Shown piece by piece: positions 1 to 25,213 of a stretch of DNA of 64,000 nucleotides (within the stretch, counting starts at the first letter, position 1; the number at the start of each line of letters is the position of its first letter). Source of the DNA: Spirochaetaceae bacterium (GTDB lineage: Bacteria; Spirochaetota; Spirochaetia; Treponematales; Treponemataceae); the NCBI GenBank assembly GCA_017936665.1, contig JAGBFB010000032.1, forward strand, positions 1-64,000, given 5' to 3'. The notes beneath the pieces were generated by a model. It ran no database searches. It was not told the DNA's origin and worked only from the letters and a program-made list of their open reading frames with translations. The translations under genes were made by a program, and so were the position numbers.

Positions 1-377
1 CCGTTACCATTTCCACCATTTAAAGAGCTACATCCTCCTGTAGAAACTTTTGTTCCAGTATCTGGTGATATATTATTTCCACCACCTAAATCATCTTTTG
101 CAGGATTATCGCCTGTTGCTGGTGGATTTTCTGGCGTTTTTGTTCCTCCACAAGTTCCTGTACTTGTTCCTGTTGTACTTCCGTTTGAATAACTTGGGCT
201 ATAACTTGATGGTGTGTCGCTTCCATTATTTGATGGTGCATTATTTGTTTCATTCCCACCTGAAGGTGGTGTTGCTGGTTGGGTTTGTGTATAATTACCA
301 CAAGCACTTGTGCCACCGTTTACTTGCATCAAACTTGTTAAATCTAACTTTACAAATTCTTTTACTGTTATTTTCAT
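1..377 (-). CDS. Secreted low-complexity protein with double-glycine leader (partial)
   Basis: The frame is open from an ATG at 375-377 to the window edge (125 codons seen). It has a good ribosome site (AGGAGG at 384-390). Residues 1-22 form a leader ending in LDLTSLMQVNGG. Counting back from the Gly-Gly, hydrophobic residues sit at -12, -7 and -4, which is the pattern of double-glycine leaders cut by C39 peptidases of ABC exporters (family knowledge). The mature part begins TSACG and is rich in Gly, Ser, Thr, Asn and Pro, with isolated Cys residues (TSACG, TGTCGG, GGCSS). I see no TM segment, no lipobox and no catalytic motif. It could be a bacteriocin-like or cyclised peptide precursor, or a surface filament or adhesin; the C-terminus is outside the window. 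A C10 tract and a hairpin lie in its upstream region. Confidence 0.6.
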   Translation of the reverse strand, partial: MKITVKEFVKLDLTSLMQVNGGTSACGNYTQTQPATPPSGGNETNNAPSNNGSDTPSSYSPSYSNGSTTGTSTGTCGGTKTPENPPATGDNPAKDDLGGGNNISPDTGTKVSTGGCSSLNGGNGN

Positions 378-421
378 AACTTTGCCTCCTGTTAAAATAT
401 CTAATAAGTACAAACCATAAT

Positions 422-491
422 GTCACTCCGAAAATGTTTCAAAATCGTATCACTTTACATAGTGTAGATATGGAAACAGGTTCAGCATGAC
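422..491. repeat. Imperfect 70-bp inverted repeat
   Basis: The left arm starts gtcactccgaaaatg (422) and the right arm ends caggttcagcatgac (491). The arms pair over about 30 positions with several mismatches around a short AT loop. The right arm also aligns with the perfect palindrome at 24548-24568 (about 19 of 26 positions by eye, ending in tgac), so both may belong to one extragenic palindrome family. It lies between the C10 tract and the start of the double-glycine-leader gene, so it would be in that gene's leader if transcription starts near the tract. Confidence 0.45.
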
Positions 492-539
492 AAAACTTTT
501 TAGATATATAATTTTGCGTATTTCCTGTCTCCTATTATG

Positions 540-549
540 CCCCCCCCCC
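540..549. repeat. C10 homopolymer (poly-G on the minus strand)
   Basis: Ten consecutive C in an AT-rich intergenic region, about 160 bp upstream of the minus-strand double-glycine-leader gene. Poly-G tracts of this length are known slipped-strand contingency loci in spirochaetes, for example upstream of Treponema pallidum tpr genes. Phase variation here is an inference. Confidence 0.75.
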
Positions 550-637: not shown

Positions 638-752
638 CTCTCTGCTGTACTATAAACACACACTAATGTGTACACAATGGAGGAGTTTTCGTGTACACCA
701 TATACCTCTTTTATAGTACACGAAAGACCCTCTTTATCGTACACATTAGCAC
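638..752. repeat. 23-bp periodic array around GTGTACAC
   Basis: Octamers recur at exact 23-bp steps: ctgtacta (645), gtgtacac (668), gtgtacac (691), tagtacac (714) and tcgtacac (737). The copies at 668 and 691 are perfect 8-bp palindromes. The outer and inner copies also form nested inverted repeats (663-673 with 739-749; 687-696 with 716-725). A weaker match lies one step further left (622). It reads as an operator or iteron array rather than a CRISPR, because the conserved core is too short. The 378-850 gap otherwise holds only the C10 tract, the hairpin and the 3' flank of the acyl-CoA synthetase gene. Confidence 0.6.
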
Positions 753-850
753 CTATTTATTATACCATATAAATAATTAGGTTGTAGATTATTTGAGGAA
801 AAATATTTTATATAGAGTAGTAGATTGTCAAATAAATTCAGCAAGACAAA

Positions 851-2587
851 TTAAGATTTATCCTTTTTATCGTTTTTGTCTTTTTTATCTTTGCTATAAA
901 CATATCGTTTAATTTTTTGACTAGCAGTCTTTTCAAAATTTTCGATAAACTTAATTGTTGAAATCTTTGACATCTTGTTTACTTTTTCATTTACAAAGAA
1001 TTTTATTTCTGAAATTAAAGCATCCCGTTTGTAAAGTATATCTTCTGTAAAATCGTGAACGGCATCCCCAACAGCATTTCCTGCTGCAAGTAATTTTTCT
1101 ATAATAGTTCCATCTTTTTTAAGTTTTTCGCCATCAAGTTGAACAAGAGCAACAAGACTTCCTTCTTCTTCCACAACCAAAGATTCATTTACTAAAGGAT
1201 GTTGATTCAATACAAATTCAATATCTTCTGGATAAATATTTTCGCCTGAAGAACTTAAAATCATATTTTTTAGGCGACCTTTTAACTCAAGCCACATTCC
1301 GTTATGAAGCAAACCTAAATCTCCAGTTTTAAACCAACCTGCTCCAACAGAATCATTTTCTGTAGTAAAAACGCTTTTTGTAAGTTCACTTTCTTTGTAA
1401 TAACCTTTCATTACATTTGGTCCACGAGCAACAACTTCGCCAATTCCTGTTTCTGGGTCAGGATTAATAATTGCAAGTTCAACGCCCCGTAAAATAGGTC
1501 CAACTGTTCCTGGAATTGTTTCTTTAGGAGAAGATCCTGCAAGCAAAGGAGAAGTTTCGGTTAATCCATAACCGATTGCATAAGGAAATTTTGCATCTTT
1601 TAAGAAATATTCAACTTTAGTATCAATTTTTGCGCCACCAATTCCAAAAAAGCAAATTCTACCACCAAAAGTTTTCTTTAATTGACTTCCCGCAATTTTG
1701 TGCATTATTTTTTGGAAAAATGGATTTTTGTACAATTTTTTAGAAAACTCAGTTTTGTTTAATGTTGGAAAAACCTTATTTTTATAAATTTTTTCCATAA
1801 TCATTGGAACACTTAAAACAATTGTAGGTCTAATTTTCTTGAAAGCTGGTAACAAAGAAGAAACCGTTGGTGGTCGCTCCAAATAATAAATACATCCACC
1901 ATTTAAAACAATAAGAACAAAGCCAATTGTAAATTCATAAACATGAGAAAGTGGCAAAAATGATAAACATTTATCTCTTTGATTTACACGATGAACAGTT
2001 TGACATTGAATTGCAGTCCATACTAAATTTTTGTGAGTAAGTTCAACACCTTTTGAACGGCCTGTAGTTCCAGAAGTATAAATGATAGAAGCGGTATCTT
2101 CTTCCAAAACTTCCACATCATTAACAAATTCTGAAATTGTAAATCCTTCCGGTTCACCTCTTAAAAAAGTTAAATCATCAAGTTTAATCACGATTGGAAG
2201 AATATCTTCTGACAAGTCTTTTACTTTGTTCCATAATTTTTCGGCAACAAACATTACAGAAACTTGAGCATGATTTAAAATTGAAGTTACTTCAACTGCA
2301 CTAAAATCTGGCAACAAAGGAACTGCAATAGCTCCCATATTTACAATACCAAAATAACTTGCCCCCCAGTTTGGCATACTTGTACTAAAAATTGAAACTT
2401 TATCGCCTTTTTTGATACCTAAACTGTGTAACAAAGCAGAAACTTCTTTTACTTTGCTTCCAATCTGTTCGTAAGTTAGAGGAGTTCCATTTACAAAGGA
2501 TAAAGCTGGTCTACTTGAGAACTTTGATAAAGTATTGTTTAACAAAGCAGGAAAAGTATACTGCTTTAAATCTTTTATAGTTTGCAT
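851..2587 (-). CDS. Long-chain acyl-CoA synthetase (AMP-binding enzyme)
   Basis: A 578-residue ANL-superfamily adenylate-forming enzyme that activates fatty acids with ATP and CoA. The phosphate-binding loop IIYTSGTTGRSKG is at about residues 168-180. The adenine motif GYGLTETSP and the hinge motif WFKTGDLG follow, and there is a Lys/Asp-rich C-terminal tail. The open frame continues 38 codons further upstream, but the ATG at 2587 has GGAGAAATT just before it, while the extension runs through a series of hairpins and does not look like family sequence; I therefore start at 2587. It stands alone on the minus strand. Spirochaetes often carry several such synthetases for exogenous fatty acid uptake (general knowledge). 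Substrate chain length cannot be read from sequence. Confidence 0.9.
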   Translation of the reverse strand: MQTIKDLKQYTFPALLNNTLSKFSSRPALSFVNGTPLTYEQIGSKVKEVSALLHSLGIKKGDKVSIFSTSMPNWGASYFGIVNMGAIAVPLLPDFSAVEVTSILNHAQVSVMFVAEKLWNKVKDLSEDILPIVIKLDDLTFLRGEPEGFTISEFVNDVEVLEEDTASIIYTSGTTGRSKGVELTHKNLVWTAIQCQTVHRVNQRDKCLSFLPLSHVYEFTIGFVLIVLNGGCIYYLERPPTVSSLLPAFKKIRPTIVLSVPMIMEKIYKNKVFPTLNKTEFSKKLYKNPFFQKIMHKIAGSQLKKTFGGRICFFGIGGAKIDTKVEYFLKDAKFPYAIGYGLTETSPLLAGSSPKETIPGTVGPILRGVELAIINPDPETGIGEVVARGPNVMKGYYKESELTKSVFTTENDSVGAGWFKTGDLGLLHNGMWLELKGRLKNMILSSSGENIYPEDIEFVLNQHPLVNESLVVEEEGSLVALVQLDGEKLKKDGTIIEKLLAAGNAVGDAVHDFTEDILYKRDALISEIKFFVNEKVNKMSKISTIKFIENFEKTASQKIKRYVYSKDKKDKNDKKDKS

Positions 2588-2600
2588 AATTTCTCCGATA

Positions 2601-2743
2601 AGAAGTAACTGAGGAATTTTCAAATTCCGAAGGAACTTCTTAGTTGTGGTTTCGTAATGTAATGAGAAACCACAGTTAATATCACAAGTTTGCTCTAGCA
2701 AACTTGATTTGAAAAGCGAAGCACTATTTGTGCGTAGCTTTTC
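2601..2743. other. Four consecutive hairpins upstream of the acyl-CoA synthetase
   Basis: Back-to-back inverted repeats lie just upstream of the synthetase start: 2601-2640 (agaagt/acttct with inner ggaattt/aaattcc), 2645-2674 (tgtggttt/aaaccaca), 2685-2706 (caagtttgct/agcaaacttg, 2-nt loop) and 2711-2743 (gaaaagc/gcttttc with inner gcac/gtgc). If transcribed, they would form a strongly structured leader. I do not recognise a known riboswitch. Confidence 0.55.
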
Positions 2744-2838
2744 ATAATTCCCCTTAAAATATTTTTATGGATTTTTCTTATTGTGATGAAATGTTAACAT
2801 ATTTGCAAGTAAATTTAAAGTACGAAGAATTTTATATA

Positions 2839-3462
2839 TCAATGTTTTTTATCAAAAAAATTTTTTGTTTTTAATTCTGTTATTATTTTAGAAGCAATAA
2901 TTTCTGCACCCTTTTCATTAGGATGGTAATCGTCAATTTTCAGAGTATCATCATAAAAACGTCCATTCCAAATATTTGAGATTACTAAAATATTGTTATT
3001 TTCAAAAAATTCAAATGCTTCATGATACTCAACTAACATCTCATTATTTTGTAATTCATCAATAGTTAGAAACATTGATGAATCTATAAAACTCACAAGG
3101 CATACTTTTATTTTTTTTTCTTGTAGATAGTTAATTATAGTTAACAAATTTTCCTTTGTAGCTTTTGCAGTTTTTCGTAATAAAAAGTCATTTGCACCTA
3201 ATTCAATTATTGCAAAACTAATATTTGATAAATCAAACTTATTAAGTTGTTTTACACAAACATTCGCTGTGTATCCCAATACACAACTATCAATTATACG
3301 ATAATCAAATTCTTTATTAACAATCTGAACAACAGAACTATTATTAGATAATATAAATCCTGAAAATAAACTATCTCCAATACACAAAGTATCTTTGGAG
3401 TTTGAACATCCAAATAAAAAAATAATTAAAATCATGCAGAATATATATATTTTTTTTTTCAT
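2839..3462 (-). CDS. SGNH/GDSL-family hydrolase lipoprotein
   Basis: A 207-residue exported esterase-type hydrolase. There is a signal peptide with lipobox LFGC (Cys about 19), then block I GDSLFSG (nucleophile Ser), block III GAND, and the C-terminal DYHPNEKG block with the Asp and His of the triad. The order and spacing match TesA-like SGNH hydrolases. The lipid anchor places it in the periplasm or on the surface; the substrate is unknown. Six bases separate it from the upstream minus-strand gene (start 4218), so it is the last gene of a likely three-gene operon with that lipoprotein and a C39-like peptidase. Confidence 0.8.
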   Translation of the reverse strand: MKKKIYIFCMILIIFLFGCSNSKDTLCIGDSLFSGFILSNNSSVVQIVNKEFDYRIIDSCVLGYTANVCVKQLNKFDLSNISFAIIELGANDFLLRKTAKATKENLLTIINYLQEKKIKVCLVSFIDSSMFLTIDELQNNEMLVEYHEAFEFFENNNILVISNIWNGRFYDDTLKIDDYHPNEKGAEIIASKIITELKTKNFFDKKH

Positions 3463-3468
3463 ATGATT

Positions 3469-4218
3469 CTAATCAATTGGAATAAAAGTCGTTGCATTAG
3501 AATTAGTATTTCTTGAATTAACCTCTTTGTTTAATACAAAAGCTCTGTGATTAAATCCTACTCTTGATAAAGTTACATTATCAGAACGCAATGTTAAATC
3601 ATCTGAAAATGTTGCATTTATCCATGGGTCAATAAAAACATAATTATCAAAATTATCAGCATCAAGAACGGAACGTGAATTTTTTGTATTTATACAATAT
3701 TTCCAAGAATAAATTGGATCAAAAGATTCTATAGATCCATCATAGTAAAAAATTGCCTCTAAATCATTTGTTATATATCCTAGAGAAGACGCATATTCAG
3801 AACATTGCTTTTGAGTAGCCATATACATCTTATTAGAATTAGAATTTAATAATAACGCTCCATTTTCTAATTCACCAGTAATAGCATTAACAGTTTGTAT
3901 ACCAAGAACTTGGCCATCAGGCATCACTCCTGTTATAAGATAGTAAAATTTTTTTTCCTTATGTAATTTTCCATCAGGTAAAACCGAAATAAATACAGTT
4001 TCACCCCAAGTTATGTCATATACTCTTTCATCAAACTTAGGAGAAGAAAGAACATAAAATTGCTGATAATAATCTGATTCCATAATATCTTTTGCAACAA
4101 CTTCCTTTGCAAATTCCTCTGTGATAAAAGAAAGCTTAGCAATTTCTTTTTCTGAATTGTTACAAGCCATAAAACATATTGTAACTAAAAATAACAAAAA
4201 TAAACTAAATTTTTTCAT
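3469..4218 (-). CDS. Lipoprotein of unknown function
   Basis: 249 residues. The signal peptide ends in lipobox CFMAC (Cys about 19). The mature part is mixed alpha/beta with aromatic-rich segments (for example YDITWGETVFIS, FDPIYSWKYC) and no motif I recognise. It lies 8 bases after the C39-like peptidase gene and 6 bases before the SGNH hydrolase, so the three are probably co-transcribed and may act on the same extracellular substrate (inference from position only). Confidence 0.65.
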   Translation of the reverse strand: MKKFSLFLLFLVTICFMACNNSEKEIAKLSFITEEFAKEVVAKDIMESDYYQQFYVLSSPKFDERVYDITWGETVFISVLPDGKLHKEKKFYYLITGVMPDGQVLGIQTVNAITGELENGALLLNSNSNKMYMATQKQCSEYASSLGYITNDLEAIFYYDGSIESFDPIYSWKYCINTKNSRSVLDADNFDNYVFIDPWINATFSDDLTLRSDNVTLSRVGFNHRAFVLNKEVNSRNTNSNATTFIPID

Positions 4219-4226
4219 AAAAACTC

Positions 4227-4874
4227 CTAATTATAATCCTTAAAAAACAATGTCAAATATCCACTATCATTTACAAGTGATTCAAACTCCCATTGTTCAT
4301 AACTAACATGTCTTTCCCCATAATAAGGATCGTTATAATATACTTTTGTAGTTTTATTAGTATTTAAATCTTTTTGATATCCTGTTACAACTACTGCATG
4401 TGGAGGATTTATATTTTTATACCCAAGAACAGAAATTAAAGGTTGTCTATCTATTTGTATTTCAGGAATAATTTGAAACATTGATCCAGAATTACATGAA
4501 AAATCGGAACTCAATTCTGCGAAATCGTCATTAGTAATATTTATATGATAACGCATAAATGCAGAAATAGACTGAGGTGCACCATCATTGGAATATGGAT
4601 AAAACGAAGAACCGTAAGTCATCCAAAAAAAATCACTTATGTACTCTTGAACTTCATAATTTGATCCATCTAAAAAATCCTCATCAGACCAACCAACAAT
4701 ATCAGCAAAAAACTCGGCACACATCAAAGTACAAGCAGGTAAACACCACACTTTTGTTTCTTGATAAATTAATGGAACATCTATTTGGTACGTCTTCTTT
4801 GTTGATATAGCAGAGCTACAAGAGATAGAAAATAAAATGAAAAATAAACATAAAATAATATTAACCCTTTTCAT
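4227..4874 (-). CDS. C39-like (papain-fold) cysteine peptidase lipoprotein
   Basis: About 215 residues when started at MKRVNIILC, which gives a clean signal peptide with lipobox SISC; an ATG seven codons upstream is possible. The catalytic pattern of the Peptidase_C39_2 type is visible: QETKVWCLPAC (oxyanion Gln and nucleophile Cys), then HAVVVTGY (His) and YYNDPYYG (Asp). The family includes exported peptidases and transpeptidases; without an ABC domain it is not the standard double-glycine-leader processor. It heads the operon with the lipoprotein and SGNH hydrolase genes and is divergent from the antiporter gene. No clear ribosome site is visible. Confidence 0.7.
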   Translation of the reverse strand: MKRVNIILCLFFILFSISCSSAISTKKTYQIDVPLIYQETKVWCLPACTLMCAEFFADIVGWSDEDFLDGSNYEVQEYISDFFWMTYGSSFYPYSNDGAPQSISAFMRYHINITNDDFAELSSDFSCNSGSMFQIIPEIQIDRQPLISVLGYKNINPPHAVVVTGYQKDLNTNKTTKVYYNDPYYGERHVSYEQWEFESLVNDSGYLTLFFKDYN

Positions 4875-4981
4875 AGTAATACTATATGACAACATTTATA
4901 TACTTGTCAACAAATAATAATAAAATTAACAATAAGTTAACATTTATTTACAAAAATCTCCAATATTATTATAATCCAGTT

Positions 4982-6706
4982 ATGAATGTTATTGCTGATA
5001 TAGTTCCAGAATTTATGCATTTTAACTTTGTAGATTCTGCAAATTTAATTTTACTTTTAGGTTTTATTTTAATTTTAGGTGCAATTGGTGGACGCCTTTT
5101 TCAAAAACTAAAAATTCCACAAGTTGTAGGATATATCGTAATTGGAATTATCATTGGTCAATCAGGGTTTCAGATTTTAAGTTCACAAGTGATAACTGCA
5201 CTTGACCCAATAAATTCACTTGCTCTTTCTTTGATAGGATTTTTAATTGGAGCAGAATTAAAAACTTCGGTAATAAAAAAATACGGAAAACAATTTACAG
5301 GAATTTTGCTTTTTGAATCCATCGTACCATTTGTGGTTGTTTCTATCGCTGTAACTTTGATAACTTTTTTTGTTACAAAAGATTTTGTTTTAGCAATTTG
5401 CTTAGGTTTGATTTTAGGCGCAATTTCTGCCGCCACAGCTCCAGCTGCTACAACTGATGTTTTAAAAGAAAACAGAACCCGAGGTCCACTTACCACAACA
5501 GTTTTAGGAATTGTTGCTATGGACGATGCAGTTGCATTGATTTTGTACGCAATTACATCTTCTATCGCTTCAAATCTTTTAGGTGGGCAAAGTTTATCTT
5601 TGGGAACACAACTTCTAACTTTAGCCTACGATATTTTTGGTTCAATTTTAATGGGATGTTTTATCGGTTTTATACTTAGCCTTTTACTAAAAAATATTAT
5701 GAACAACGAAGGAAGAAGTTTATCTTTTTCTTTAGGATTTTTGTTTTTATCCACAGGAATTTGTGCCTTAATCAATCTTGATAACATTCTTTGTTCAATG
5801 GCAATTGGATTTTTTCTTGTAAACTTTGCACCAGCAAAAATCAGAGCTGTTTTTGAATTTATTGAAAAATACACTCCTCCAATTTATGTTTTATTTTTTG
5901 TTTTGGTTGGTGCAAAATTAAATATTTGGAATGTTACTTCATTCTTAGGAATAATCGCTATCGTTTATGTTTTGTGCAGAACTATCGGAAAAACTATCGG
6001 TGCAAAAATCGGAGCAAAACTTACAAAGGCTCCAATCACAGTTTACAAATATCTTCCGTATTGTCTTTTAAGTCAGGCAGGAGTTGCAATCGGACTTTCA
6101 ATTGCAGCAGGACAACAATTTCAAGATACAATCGGAAGTACAATAATGTTGATTGTTACTGCCACAACTTTTATTGTTCAAATAATTGGACCTATTTGTG
6201 TAAAATATGGAGTTACAAAGGCAGAAGAATGTGGACTTGATATTACAGAAGATGACATTATGAAACAATGCAAACTTTCTGATGTTCAGTGTGGAGGTAT
6301 TGCAATTTGTGATAAAAATTCCCCTGCAATTATTTTAGAAAACGAAAGTTTGCCTTCTTTAATAAATTCTTTTGGAAAAAATCATAATCAAAACTATGTA
6401 GTAAAAACTGAAGATAATAAACTTGCTGGAATTATCACTTTGGAATACTTAAAAGAAACTTTGCTAATAATGGATTTTTACGAAGCAATGATGGCAGAAG
6501 ATATTATGGTTCCTACAGAAATTTTTGTTACACCAGAAATGCCAATTCCAGAAGTGATGAATCTTTTTACAGAACATGATGTAGACGCTTTACCAATTTT
6601 AGACAAAGAAGGTAACGTCCTTGGAGTTGCTGAAAAAACTGCCATAGAACATTACCTTCATGCAAAGATTTTAGAAGTGCATCAAAAATTGGCTATGTTA
6701 GGATAA
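4982..6706 (+). CDS. CPA2-type cation:proton antiporter with C-terminal CBS domains
   Basis: About 574 residues from the ATG at 4982; the open frame starts further upstream with non-family sequence. The first 410 residues form about 12 hydrophobic segments typical of the Na+/H+ exchanger fold, including the conserved core AAPTTD-like ATAPAATTD and AMDDAVALILY, where the Asp residues are the usual ion/proton site. The last 150 residues are cytoplasmic and end in a CBS pair (EDIMVPTEIF ... DALPILDKEGNVLGV), which usually senses adenine nucleotides. The role is pH or monovalent-cation homeostasis at the inner membrane. It is convergent with the next gene, with only one base between the stop codons. 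Confidence 0.88.
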   Translation: MNVIADIVPEFMHFNFVDSANLILLLGFILILGAIGGRLFQKLKIPQVVGYIVIGIIIGQSGFQILSSQVITALDPINSLALSLIGFLIGAELKTSVIKKYGKQFTGILLFESIVPFVVVSIAVTLITFFVTKDFVLAICLGLILGAISAATAPAATTDVLKENRTRGPLTTTVLGIVAMDDAVALILYAITSSIASNLLGGQSLSLGTQLLTLAYDIFGSILMGCFIGFILSLLLKNIMNNEGRSLSFSLGFLFLSTGICALINLDNILCSMAIGFFLVNFAPAKIRAVFEFIEKYTPPIYVLFFVLVGAKLNIWNVTSFLGIIAIVYVLCRTIGKTIGAKIGAKLTKAPITVYKYLPYCLLSQAGVAIGLSIAAGQQFQDTIGSTIMLIVTATTFIVQIIGPICVKYGVTKAEECGLDITEDDIMKQCKLSDVQCGGIAICDKNSPAIILENESLPSLINSFGKNHNQNYVVKTEDNKLAGIITLEYLKETLLIMDFYEAMMAEDIMVPTEIFVTPEMPIPEVMNLFTEHDVDALPILDKEGNVLGVAEKTAIEHYLHAKILEVHQKLAMLG

Positions 6707-9860: not shown

Positions 9861-9869
9861 CCCCCCCCC
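9861..9869. repeat. C9 homopolymer (poly-G on the minus strand)
   Basis: Nine consecutive C in AT-rich intergenic DNA, 72 bp upstream of the lipoprotein gene starting at 9789. This position suits changing promoter spacing or a regulator site by slippage. The rest of the 9790-10001 gap contains one perfect 14-bp palindrome, cgtaaaattttacg at 9953-9966. Confidence 0.75.
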
Positions 9870-20082: not shown

Positions 20083-20091
20083 CCCCCCCCC
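20083..20091. repeat. C9 homopolymer (poly-G on the minus strand)
   Basis: Nine consecutive C 64 bp upstream of the lipoprotein start at 20019, placed like the tract at 9861-9869 (72 bp upstream). Probably a slippage-prone promoter or leader element. Confidence 0.75.
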
Positions 20092-24736: not shown

Positions 24737-25213
24737 TTAAATCTTCAAAATTTCTTTCTTTTTTGCATCAAAATCTTCTTGTGTAATTACGCCTTCATCA
24801 AGAAGTTTTTTGTATCTTTTTAATACAACAACAGAATCAAATTCTGCTTGGGAAGCAGCTTGAACTTGAGCTATGGCTTCTGATGAAACAACTGGAGTAC
24901 CATCTGTAGGTCCCCCCCCATTGCGGCAGCAGCAGTAGCAGCTTCTTTTTCTCTTGCTTTCATCGCTTTTTCACCAGCTTTTGTAAGTTGATCATGTTCC
25001 ACAACTTTTCCTGGATTATCTAATTCAAAACATTGTCTTGAACAATACTTTCCTACAAATAATAACGGAAAAATTCTATATTGATAATCACTCCCCCCCC
25101 CACCTACCTTTTTTATCATACATACCACATTGAGAGCTGAGAGTTTTACACATTTTACATCTTTTTTGCCTATACATATCGCAAAAAGGAATTTTTTTAT
25201 TTAATATACCCAT
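24737..25213 (-). CDS. SHOCT-domain protein interrupted by two poly-G tracts (phase-variable)
   Basis: Starts at ATG 25213 (AAGGAG upstream) and encodes a Cys-rich N-terminus (C11, C19, C22, C29; MYRQKRCKMCKTLSSQCG) resembling a small zinc-binding module. At the G9 tract (25093-25101) the frame runs into TGA after 41 residues. One G fewer would join the frame WGGSDYQYRIFPLLFVGKYC, whose next part contains an Ala/Lys-rich helix. At the second tract (G8, 24912-24919) this middle frame again leaves register; one G more would join the C-terminal SHOCT domain LKRYKKLLDEGVITQEDF. The total length is a multiple of three, so the outer parts share a frame. Three products are possible: 41, 113 or about 158 residues. 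As written the gene is off. Homopolymer sequencing error is the alternative. The function of SHOCT proteins is unknown; the domain is often oligomerising. Confidence 0.75.
24912..24919. repeat. Intragenic C8 tract (poly-G, coding strand)
   Basis: Eight C within the SHOCT gene. Nine (or six) would restore the frame from the middle segment into the SHOCT domain. Confidence 0.75.
25093..25101. repeat. Intragenic C9 tract (poly-G, coding strand)
   Basis: Nine C within the same gene. Eight would restore the frame from the Cys-rich N-terminus into the middle segment. Confidence 0.75.

What the first reader, a model, noticed from the sequence alone, without database searches (positions are those of the whole stretch)
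1..549. Double-glycine-leader protein downstream of a hairpin and a G10 tract
The leader MKITVKEFVKLDLTSLMQVNGG fits the C39-exporter consensus at every hydrophobic position, and the mature part is Gly/Ser/Thr/Asn/Pro-rich with Cys. Its upstream region combines a homopolymer and a 70-bp inverted repeat. Phase-variable export of a peptide or filament protein from a spirochaete would be unusual. The producer or exporter genes would lie left of the window.
Basis: partly seen in the sequence, partly recalled or inferred. Interest (0 to 1): 0.65.

Follow-up and report, generated by a model that had tools for sequence, protein, structure and literature searches.

The report
Start of an exported treponeme effector
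At the cut end of this contig lies the start of a gene for an exported treponeme protein that most likely belongs to a family of interchangeable antibacterial proteins, each paired with a probable protector gene.

Summary
Window 3-377 (minus) encodes a double-glycine leader followed by a Gly/Ser/Thr/Asn/Pro-rich, Cys-containing stretch; a G10 tract and a 70-bp palindrome lie upstream. The window begins at the contig's first base, so the gene is cut there. The genome has a full C39-peptidase exporter with HlyD and an outer-membrane channel, beside another cargo gene with the same kind of leader. A leader profile finds 45 such proteins in 63 fetched stretches of related genomes. They share leader and linker type but carry different C-terminal domains (M23 and M15 peptidases, L,D-transpeptidase, LysM, papain-like) and are usually followed by a secreted or lipoprotein gene that tends to co-vary with the C-terminal domain. 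This is polymorphic toxin-immunity anatomy on a C39 export leader. The residues after the cleavage site match the neighbouring enzyme: Tyr-Ser/Gly with a glycosyltransferase (0 of 9 with Cys), Cys-Gly with a radical SAM/SPASM enzyme (9 of 9). The window gene is of the Cys type; its own C-terminal domain is not in the assembly. Phase variation is untested; the palindrome is a dispersed repeat. Secretion of such proteins is already published for Treponema denticola; killing is not shown.

The parts
3..377 (-). ORF for double-glycine-leader protein, at least 125 aa, cut by the contig end (no stop codon)
   Evidence: leader profile E 1.2e-9
312..377 (-). leader MKITVKEFVKLDLTSLMQVNGG, predicted C39 cleavage after GG
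3..311 (-). start of mature part: T-S-A-C-G..., low-complexity Gly/Ser/Thr/Asn/Pro linker with 3 Cys; Cys-type N-terminus
385..390 (-). ribosome-binding site AGGAGG, shared in near-identical form with the paralogous copies on contig C15
422..491 (.). 70-bp imperfect palindrome; one copy of a dispersed palindromic repeat
540..549 (-). G10 tract (C10 on the + strand), between inverted-repeat arms 488-498 and 553-563

Best explanation
The window holds the 5' part of a gene for a modular, C39-exported effector. Inferred steps: the leader docks the precursor on the peptidase domain of a C39 ABC exporter, which cuts after Gly-Gly and passes the protein through HlyD and a TolC-like channel; the Ser/Thr/Gly/Cys-rich linker carries an interchangeable C-terminal domain (lost here beyond the contig end) that attacks rival bacteria, often at the cell wall; the next gene, with a Sec or lipoprotein signal, protects the producer in the periplasm. 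Shown by sequence: leader, exporter, shared N-termini with different C-terminal domains in relatives, co-variation of C-terminal domain and downstream gene. Inferred: killing, immunity, the identity of this gene's own C-terminal domain, and that its exporter is the broken locus at contig C18 (TolC fragment plus radical SAM enzyme) or the one at C7.
For: Exporter set next to another cargo of the same type in this genome. Leader profile: 23 of 190 family genomes, 22 of the 23 with a C39 domain against 50 of the other 167 (without the 8 seed genomes 14 of 15, p 1.7e-6). One single-contig genome (G018) has six cargoes with the same leader and three kinds of C-terminal region, three of the six lying 1.4-1.5 Mb from the exporter. 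C-terminal domains over Pfam cut-offs, in 31 of the 45 proteins that were scanned: M23 in 4, M15 in 2, YkuD in 1, LysM in 1, DUF4329 in 1. Downstream gene secretory in 32 of 41 against 173 of 494 control genes. Cargo pairs from different loci with homologous C-terminal domains have homologous downstream genes in 9 of 20 cases, other pairs in 3 of 865. Contig C15 carries four leader copies (three decayed, one with an in-frame TGA) interleaved with genes, three of which are homologous to genes that follow cargoes elsewhere (43%, 34% and 26% identity): an orphan-immunity-like array.
Against: This gene's C-terminal domain was never seen; the paralogue on C15 ends only about 57 residues after GG, so the window protein could be a short linker-only protein. 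No killing was found with T. denticola on 7 indicator strains (PMC11879956). 22 of the 31 Pfam-scanned proteins have no domain over a cut-off. In 11 of 20 pairs the downstream genes are not detectably related. No assay of toxicity or immunity exists for any member here.
Confidence: 0.66

Rival explanations
1. The window gene is a small secreted double-glycine peptide of its own (bacteriocin-like), complete or nearly complete at the contig end, with no enzymatic domain.
For: The C15 paralogue has only about 57 residues after GG and ends GDGKVDYVKR-stop; two cargoes next to exporters are short (95 and 114 aa).
Against: The C15 copy has an in-frame TGA and an internal deletion relative to the window; most relatives are 150-500 aa; the mature part has no hydrophobic stretch of the class II bacteriocin kind.
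Confidence: 0.2
2. A decaying remnant: the cargo gene has lost its C-terminal domain by recombination, like the copies on contig C15, and is kept as a recombination seed or not at all.
For: Three of four C15 copies are broken after a few codons and the fourth has an in-frame stop.
Against: The window copy is open for 125 codons with a good ribosome site, and the pair shows pS 0.38 against pN 0.09.
Confidence: 0.12
3. A secreted structural or adhesive surface protein (matrix or filament), with the downstream lipoprotein acting in assembly.
For: Low-complexity Gly/Ser-rich sequence; the T. denticola authors note fimbrial-like structure hits for one member and saw no killing (PMC11879956).
Against: Wall-hydrolase and papain-like C-terminal domains in relatives, and co-inheritance of C-terminal domain and downstream gene, fit toxin and immunity better.
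Confidence: 0.1
4. The G10 tract makes expression of this gene phase-variable (compatible with any of the above).
For: Poly-G tracts of varying length upstream of T. pallidum genes change transcription (PMC7864442, passages); this genome has 23 tracts of 9 or more G/C and all five tracts of 8 or more in the window lie between genes.
Against: One assembly gives one length; the tract is 163 nt from the ATG and lies in neither of the promoter-like matches on this strand, and promoter-like matches are no more frequent than in shuffles.
Confidence: 0.25

Closest known systems
[quoted passage not shown]
   Same: Double-glycine cargo, clustered lipoproteins, C39 ABC exporter with HlyD; proteins found in culture supernatant. 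A fetched relative (L097, G032) carries a protein close to the T. denticola one: 11 of 14 residues of the published antigen peptide.
   Different: The parts of the papers read do not describe exchangeable C-terminal domains, co-varying downstream genes or maturases; the lipoproteins lie upstream there; the window gene has a different leader (NGG) and a Cys-type linker.
Polymorphic toxin systems (Zhang et al. 2012, PMC3482391)
   Same: Constant N-terminal trafficking part, variable C-terminal domains, immunity gene downstream, multi-immunity loci.
   Different: The passages read list other trafficking routes; the main text as held had 0 uses of 'double-glycine', and C39 appears there as a toxin domain. 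Here the trafficking part is a C39-cleaved leader.
Caulobacter contact-dependent glycine zipper bacteriocin (PMC5380434, search listing and start of abstract only)
   Same: A Gram-negative antibacterial two-protein system; its type I export is recalled.
   Different: Glycine zipper proteins, not proteins with swappable enzymatic domains.
PapB-type radical SAM/SPASM ranthipeptide maturases, and glycocins (glycosylated leader peptides)
   Same: The loci hold PapB-like radical SAM enzymes (best NCBIfam model) or a group 1/GT4-type glycosyltransferase beside leader-bearing precursors.
   Different: The radical SAM proteins score 115-145 bits against a cut-off of 340; the putative substrate is the linker of a large protein, not a short peptide.

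Membership tests
C39 (PCAT) double-glycine cargo | Leader with hydrophobic residues at -4, -7, -12 and G at -2, G/A/S at -1 (consensus recalled) | tested here: met
   sequence; leader alignment and profile
C39 (PCAT) double-glycine cargo | Exporter with C39 domain in the same genome | tested here: met
   C7 exporter, TIGR01193 4e-174 over cut-off; HlyD and OEP beside it
C39 (PCAT) double-glycine cargo | Exporter beside this very gene | tested here: inconclusive
   contig ends inside the gene; C18 start carries TolC fragment and radical SAM in the order of locus L154
C39 (PCAT) double-glycine cargo | Cleavage and export of the protein | not testable with these tools
   needs supernatant mass spectrometry
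Polymorphic toxin system | Same N-terminal trafficking part with different C-terminal domains | tested here: met
   met for the family (G018); for the window gene itself the C-terminus is missing
Polymorphic toxin system | Cognate immunity gene directly downstream | tested here: inconclusive
   family: 32 of 41 followed by a secretory gene, co-variation in 9 of 20 pairs; window gene: downstream side not assembled
Polymorphic toxin system | C-terminal domain toxic, downstream gene protective | not testable with these tools
   no assay; T. denticola showed no killing of 7 strains (PMC11879956)
Class II bacteriocin/microcin | Matches Bacteriocin_IIc or a related model | tested here: not met
   window protein: 0 Pfam and 0 NCBIfam families up to E 1
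PapB-type ranthipeptide system | Maturase over the NF047865 cut-off | tested here: not met
   four enzymes score 115-145 bits against 340
Phase-variable (contingency) locus | Repeat length varies between cells and changes expression | not testable with these tools
   single assembly

The most novel reading that the evidence does not exclude
In treponemes, RiPP-style maturation has been fused to polymorphic toxins: one leader recruits both a modifying enzyme and the C39 exporter, and the first residues of the mature toxin are made to suit the enzyme. Tyr-Ser/Gly starts are glycosylated by a dedicated glycosyltransferase; Cys-Gly starts are thioether-modified by a PapB-like radical SAM/SPASM enzyme. 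The window gene would be a Cys-type member served by the radical SAM enzyme at contig C18. The modified linker could protect the effector outside the cell, hold it on the producer's surface, or help it across the target's outer membrane.
Probability: 0.33. Interest if true: 0.78.

Novelty: new variant of a known kind. Interest (0 to 1): 0.6.

Why it matters
It gives the orphan 'bacteriocin-type signal' proteins of treponemes a testable function: exchangeable antibacterial effectors with matched protectors, sent out through C39 exporters. It offers a reason why lipoprotein genes cluster with them in T. denticola. If the link between linker residues and maturase is real, it is a class of modified protein toxins in which RiPP chemistry acts on a large protein, and mass spectrometry can test it directly. 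It also warns that such genes sit at contig breaks in assemblies and are easily overlooked.

Tried and rejected
Continuation of the gene: only C15 and the window itself hold the pattern near the window's left end, and no contig ends overlap by the fixed lengths tested, 21 to 127 bases (82 of the 86 contig ends; the far ends of C40-C43 were only read as ORF lists). Reading frames that enter from other contig ends were looked over; none could be tied to the window gene.

Fold of the papain-like domain: a profile search of PDB sequences gave nothing significant (best E 0.12; two CdiA chains at 0.41 and 0.56) and a single-sequence search nothing. PADLOC gave nothing of use for five proteins (one weak hit to the glycosyltransferase).

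Promoters and terminators near the gene: no more than in shuffles. DNA fold of the upstream region: not clearly more stable than shuffles (z -0.96).

The window's own C39-like lipoprotein gene (4227-4895) was considered as a leader peptidase and rejected: it is Peptidase_C39_2 with no ABC part and has no relative among the loci compared.

Full report
What is in the window. On the minus strand an ORF starts at ATG 377 behind AGGAGG (385-390) and is open to the window's first bases: leader MKITVKEFVKLDLTSLMQVNGG, then TSACGNYTQTQ and a Gly/Ser/Thr/Asn/Pro-rich stretch with three Cys. The window is bases 1-64000 of contig C22, so the gene is cut by the contig end. The G10 tract is at 540-549, 163 nt upstream of the ATG. 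The 70-bp inverted repeat is 422-491. The intergenic region 378-850 has 22 further matches in the genome at E up to 1 (many short and weak), most of them to the part 401-507; of nine such loci looked at, three (L015, L017, L019) plainly show the same GTCAT...ATGAC palindrome, and in the other six my pattern found nothing or an unrelated place. It is therefore a dispersed repeat and no evidence for a switch of this gene. Poly-G tracts are common in this genome: 26 nine-base matches, which merge to 23 tracts.

The exporter exists. PF03412 hits two places in the genome: a full 724-aa ABC exporter on C7 (TIGR01193, 4e-174, over its cut-off), followed by HlyD and an OEP-type protein, and a fragment at the end of C26. 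Just upstream of the C7 exporter are a 277-aa cargo with leader MENFRELDIDELLAVNGG and a lipoprotein gene.

A paralogous array. Contig C15 carries four copies of the window's ribosome site and first codons. Copy 4 is 83% identical to the window protein over 54 residues but has an in-frame TGA at a Gly position; copies 1-3 break off after a few codons. Copy 1 ends in a 24-residue tail that resembles the tail of a cargo-like frame in G004 (58%). Between the copies lie genes with Sec or lipoprotein signals. Three of them are related to genes that follow cargo genes elsewhere: the 216-aa gene to the lipoprotein after the M23-type cargo of L032 (43%, 1.8e-41), the 209-aa gene to the gene after the M23-type cargo of L141 (34%, 1e-29) and to the one after that of L144 (28%, 6e-9), and the 300-aa gene to the gene after the cargo of L154 (26%, 8e-17). 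The 351-aa gene and the lipoprotein stub found no relative. This looks like an orphan-immunity array with toxin remnants.

The family in relatives. A profile from 12 leaders finds 23 of 190 genomes of the same family at E up to 0.001; 22 of these have a C39 domain, against 50 of the other 167 (Fisher 8.6e-10; leaving out the 8 seed genomes, 14 of 15, 1.7e-6). In 63 fetched stretches, chosen because they hold an exporter or a leader hit, 49 ORFs reach E 1 and 45 reach E 0.01. Thirty-one of the 45 were scanned with Pfam: M23 in four (L032, L140, L141, L144), M15/VanY in two (L074, L098), YkuD in one (L158), LysM in one (L101), DUF4329 in one (L152); the other 22 gave no match over a cut-off. A further M23 protein with a weaker leader lies in L097. 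Three proteins (C7, L141, L081), among the 22, share a domain with invariant Cys, His and Asp, papain-like by eye, with no significant PDB match. Genome G018, a single contig, has six cargoes with the same leader and similar linkers but three kinds of C-terminal region (two of them M23, one papain-like, three of a third kind); three of the six lie 1.4-1.5 Mb from its exporter, so a cargo without a neighbouring exporter, as in the window, is not odd.

Pairing with a downstream gene. With one gene model for all stretches, the next gene on the same strand is secretory (crude hydrophobicity rule) after 32 of 41 cargoes and after 173 of 494 other genes (p 1e-7). Four of the 45 cargoes were not in this count (contig edge, short ORF, or no neighbour within 250 bases). 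Of 20 cargo pairs from different loci with related C-terminal domains, 9 have related downstream genes; of 865 other pairs, 3 do, one of them merely two exporters (p 4e-14; pairs are not independent). The C7 cargo and one cargo of G018 illustrate it: C-terminal domains 56% identical, downstream genes 26% identical (2e-15), leaders different. This is what toxin and immunity pairs look like; the eleven pairs without a detectable match show that it is not universal.

Two kinds of maturase. Six loci hold a group 1/GT4-type glycosyltransferase with a methyltransferase-like tail, at different positions relative to the exporter (L007, L088, L100, L102, L142, L151), and eight loci with a cargo of the set hold a radical SAM/SPASM protein (L032, L081, L143, L147, L149, L153, L154, L157); four of the enzymes, including the one of this genome, were compared with NCBIfam and are nearest to the PapB model but below its cut-off. 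No locus holds both. In the first six mature residues, 0 of 9 cargoes at glycosyltransferase loci have Cys (all begin with Tyr) and 9 of 9 at radical SAM loci have Cys, mostly CGGG (p 4e-5; by locus 0 of 6 and 8 of 8, p 3e-4). At loci with neither enzyme in the stretch 8 of 27 have Cys. I noticed the pattern before I counted it, so the p-values are generous. A tree of 27 exporters puts the glycosyltransferase locus L142 inside a group of radical SAM loci, and the radical SAM loci L081 and L147 among loci with neither, so the match seems to follow the enzyme and not only the exporter's ancestry. L092, whose radical SAM protein is too distant to pass my cut-off, has its first Cys at position 8.

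Where the window gene fits. Its mature start, TSACG, is of the Cys type, and its six nearest leaders all stand before a Cys-type start. The genome's radical SAM enzyme of this kind lies at the start of contig C18 behind a TolC fragment; both are nearest to those of L154 (52% over 378 residues; 26% over 175), where the order is cargo, secreted gene, C39 ABC, HlyD, TolC, radical SAM. Contig C15 ends behind truB and ribF, and contig C26 holds, behind its C39 fragment, rpsO and pnp; these four genes are neighbours in many bacteria (recalled), so C15 and C26 probably join. That leaves C22, whose cargo gene points outward, and C18, whose TolC gene enters from outside, as a plausible pair. This is inference; no overlap or read supports it.

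What is known. Treponema denticola has three such proteins next to TepA1-TepB1 and clustered lipoproteins; they are found in culture supernatant, no killing of seven indicator strains was seen, and no mutant was obtained (PMC11879956, three of five parts read; PMC4947327, passages). A T. denticola-like protein occurs in fetched locus L097, which ties the published proteins to this family of genomes and supports its being the treponemes. The passages of the polymorphic toxin survey that I saw do not list C39-leader export (PMC3482391). Searches of the held library turned up no description of exchangeable C-terminal domains or linker maturases in treponeme double-glycine proteins; most subscription papers are not held. 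T. pallidum poly-G tracts vary in length and affect transcription (PMC7864442, passages), which makes the G10 tract worth a test but shows nothing here.

Verdict. It is best read as the front of a polymorphic, C39-exported effector of a treponeme, Cys-type, with its business end missing from the assembly. The family-level anatomy is well supported; toxicity, immunity and modification are inferences.

Noticed in passing
window 2839-4895 (-): Three secreted or lipoprotein genes in a row: GDSL hydrolase, unknown, and a Peptidase_C39_2 protein; no relatives among the loci compared.
   Followed up: partly
window 647-765: Imperfect inverted repeat (50-nt arms, 70%) with repeated GTGTAC motifs upstream of the leader gene; might be a regulator site.
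   Followed up: no
window 9861-9869, 20083-20091, 24912-24919, 25093-25101: Further poly-C/G tracts of 8-9, all between genes; the genome has 23 tracts of 9 or more.
   Followed up: partly
L006 (G000 C15) 2049-5880: Four leader copies interleaved with secreted genes; copies 2 and 3 are the same short stub, copy 4 has an in-frame TGA.
   Followed up: yes
G000 contig ends C3, C9, C24, C38 (L162, L168, L183, L238): A multi-copy family of long frames (637-720 residues or more) with near-identical N-terminal part that looks like a carbohydrate-binding module and differs further on, sitting at contig breaks.
   Followed up: no
G000 contig ends C1, C2, C10, C20, C21, C29, C31, C34, C37, C39: A repeated family with variable ...GISQG/AQQKAIETAKN... 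C-termini at many contig ends.
   Followed up: no
L101 3363-4868: 501-aa double-glycine cargo with LysM and a long Ser/Cys-rich linker.
   Followed up: no
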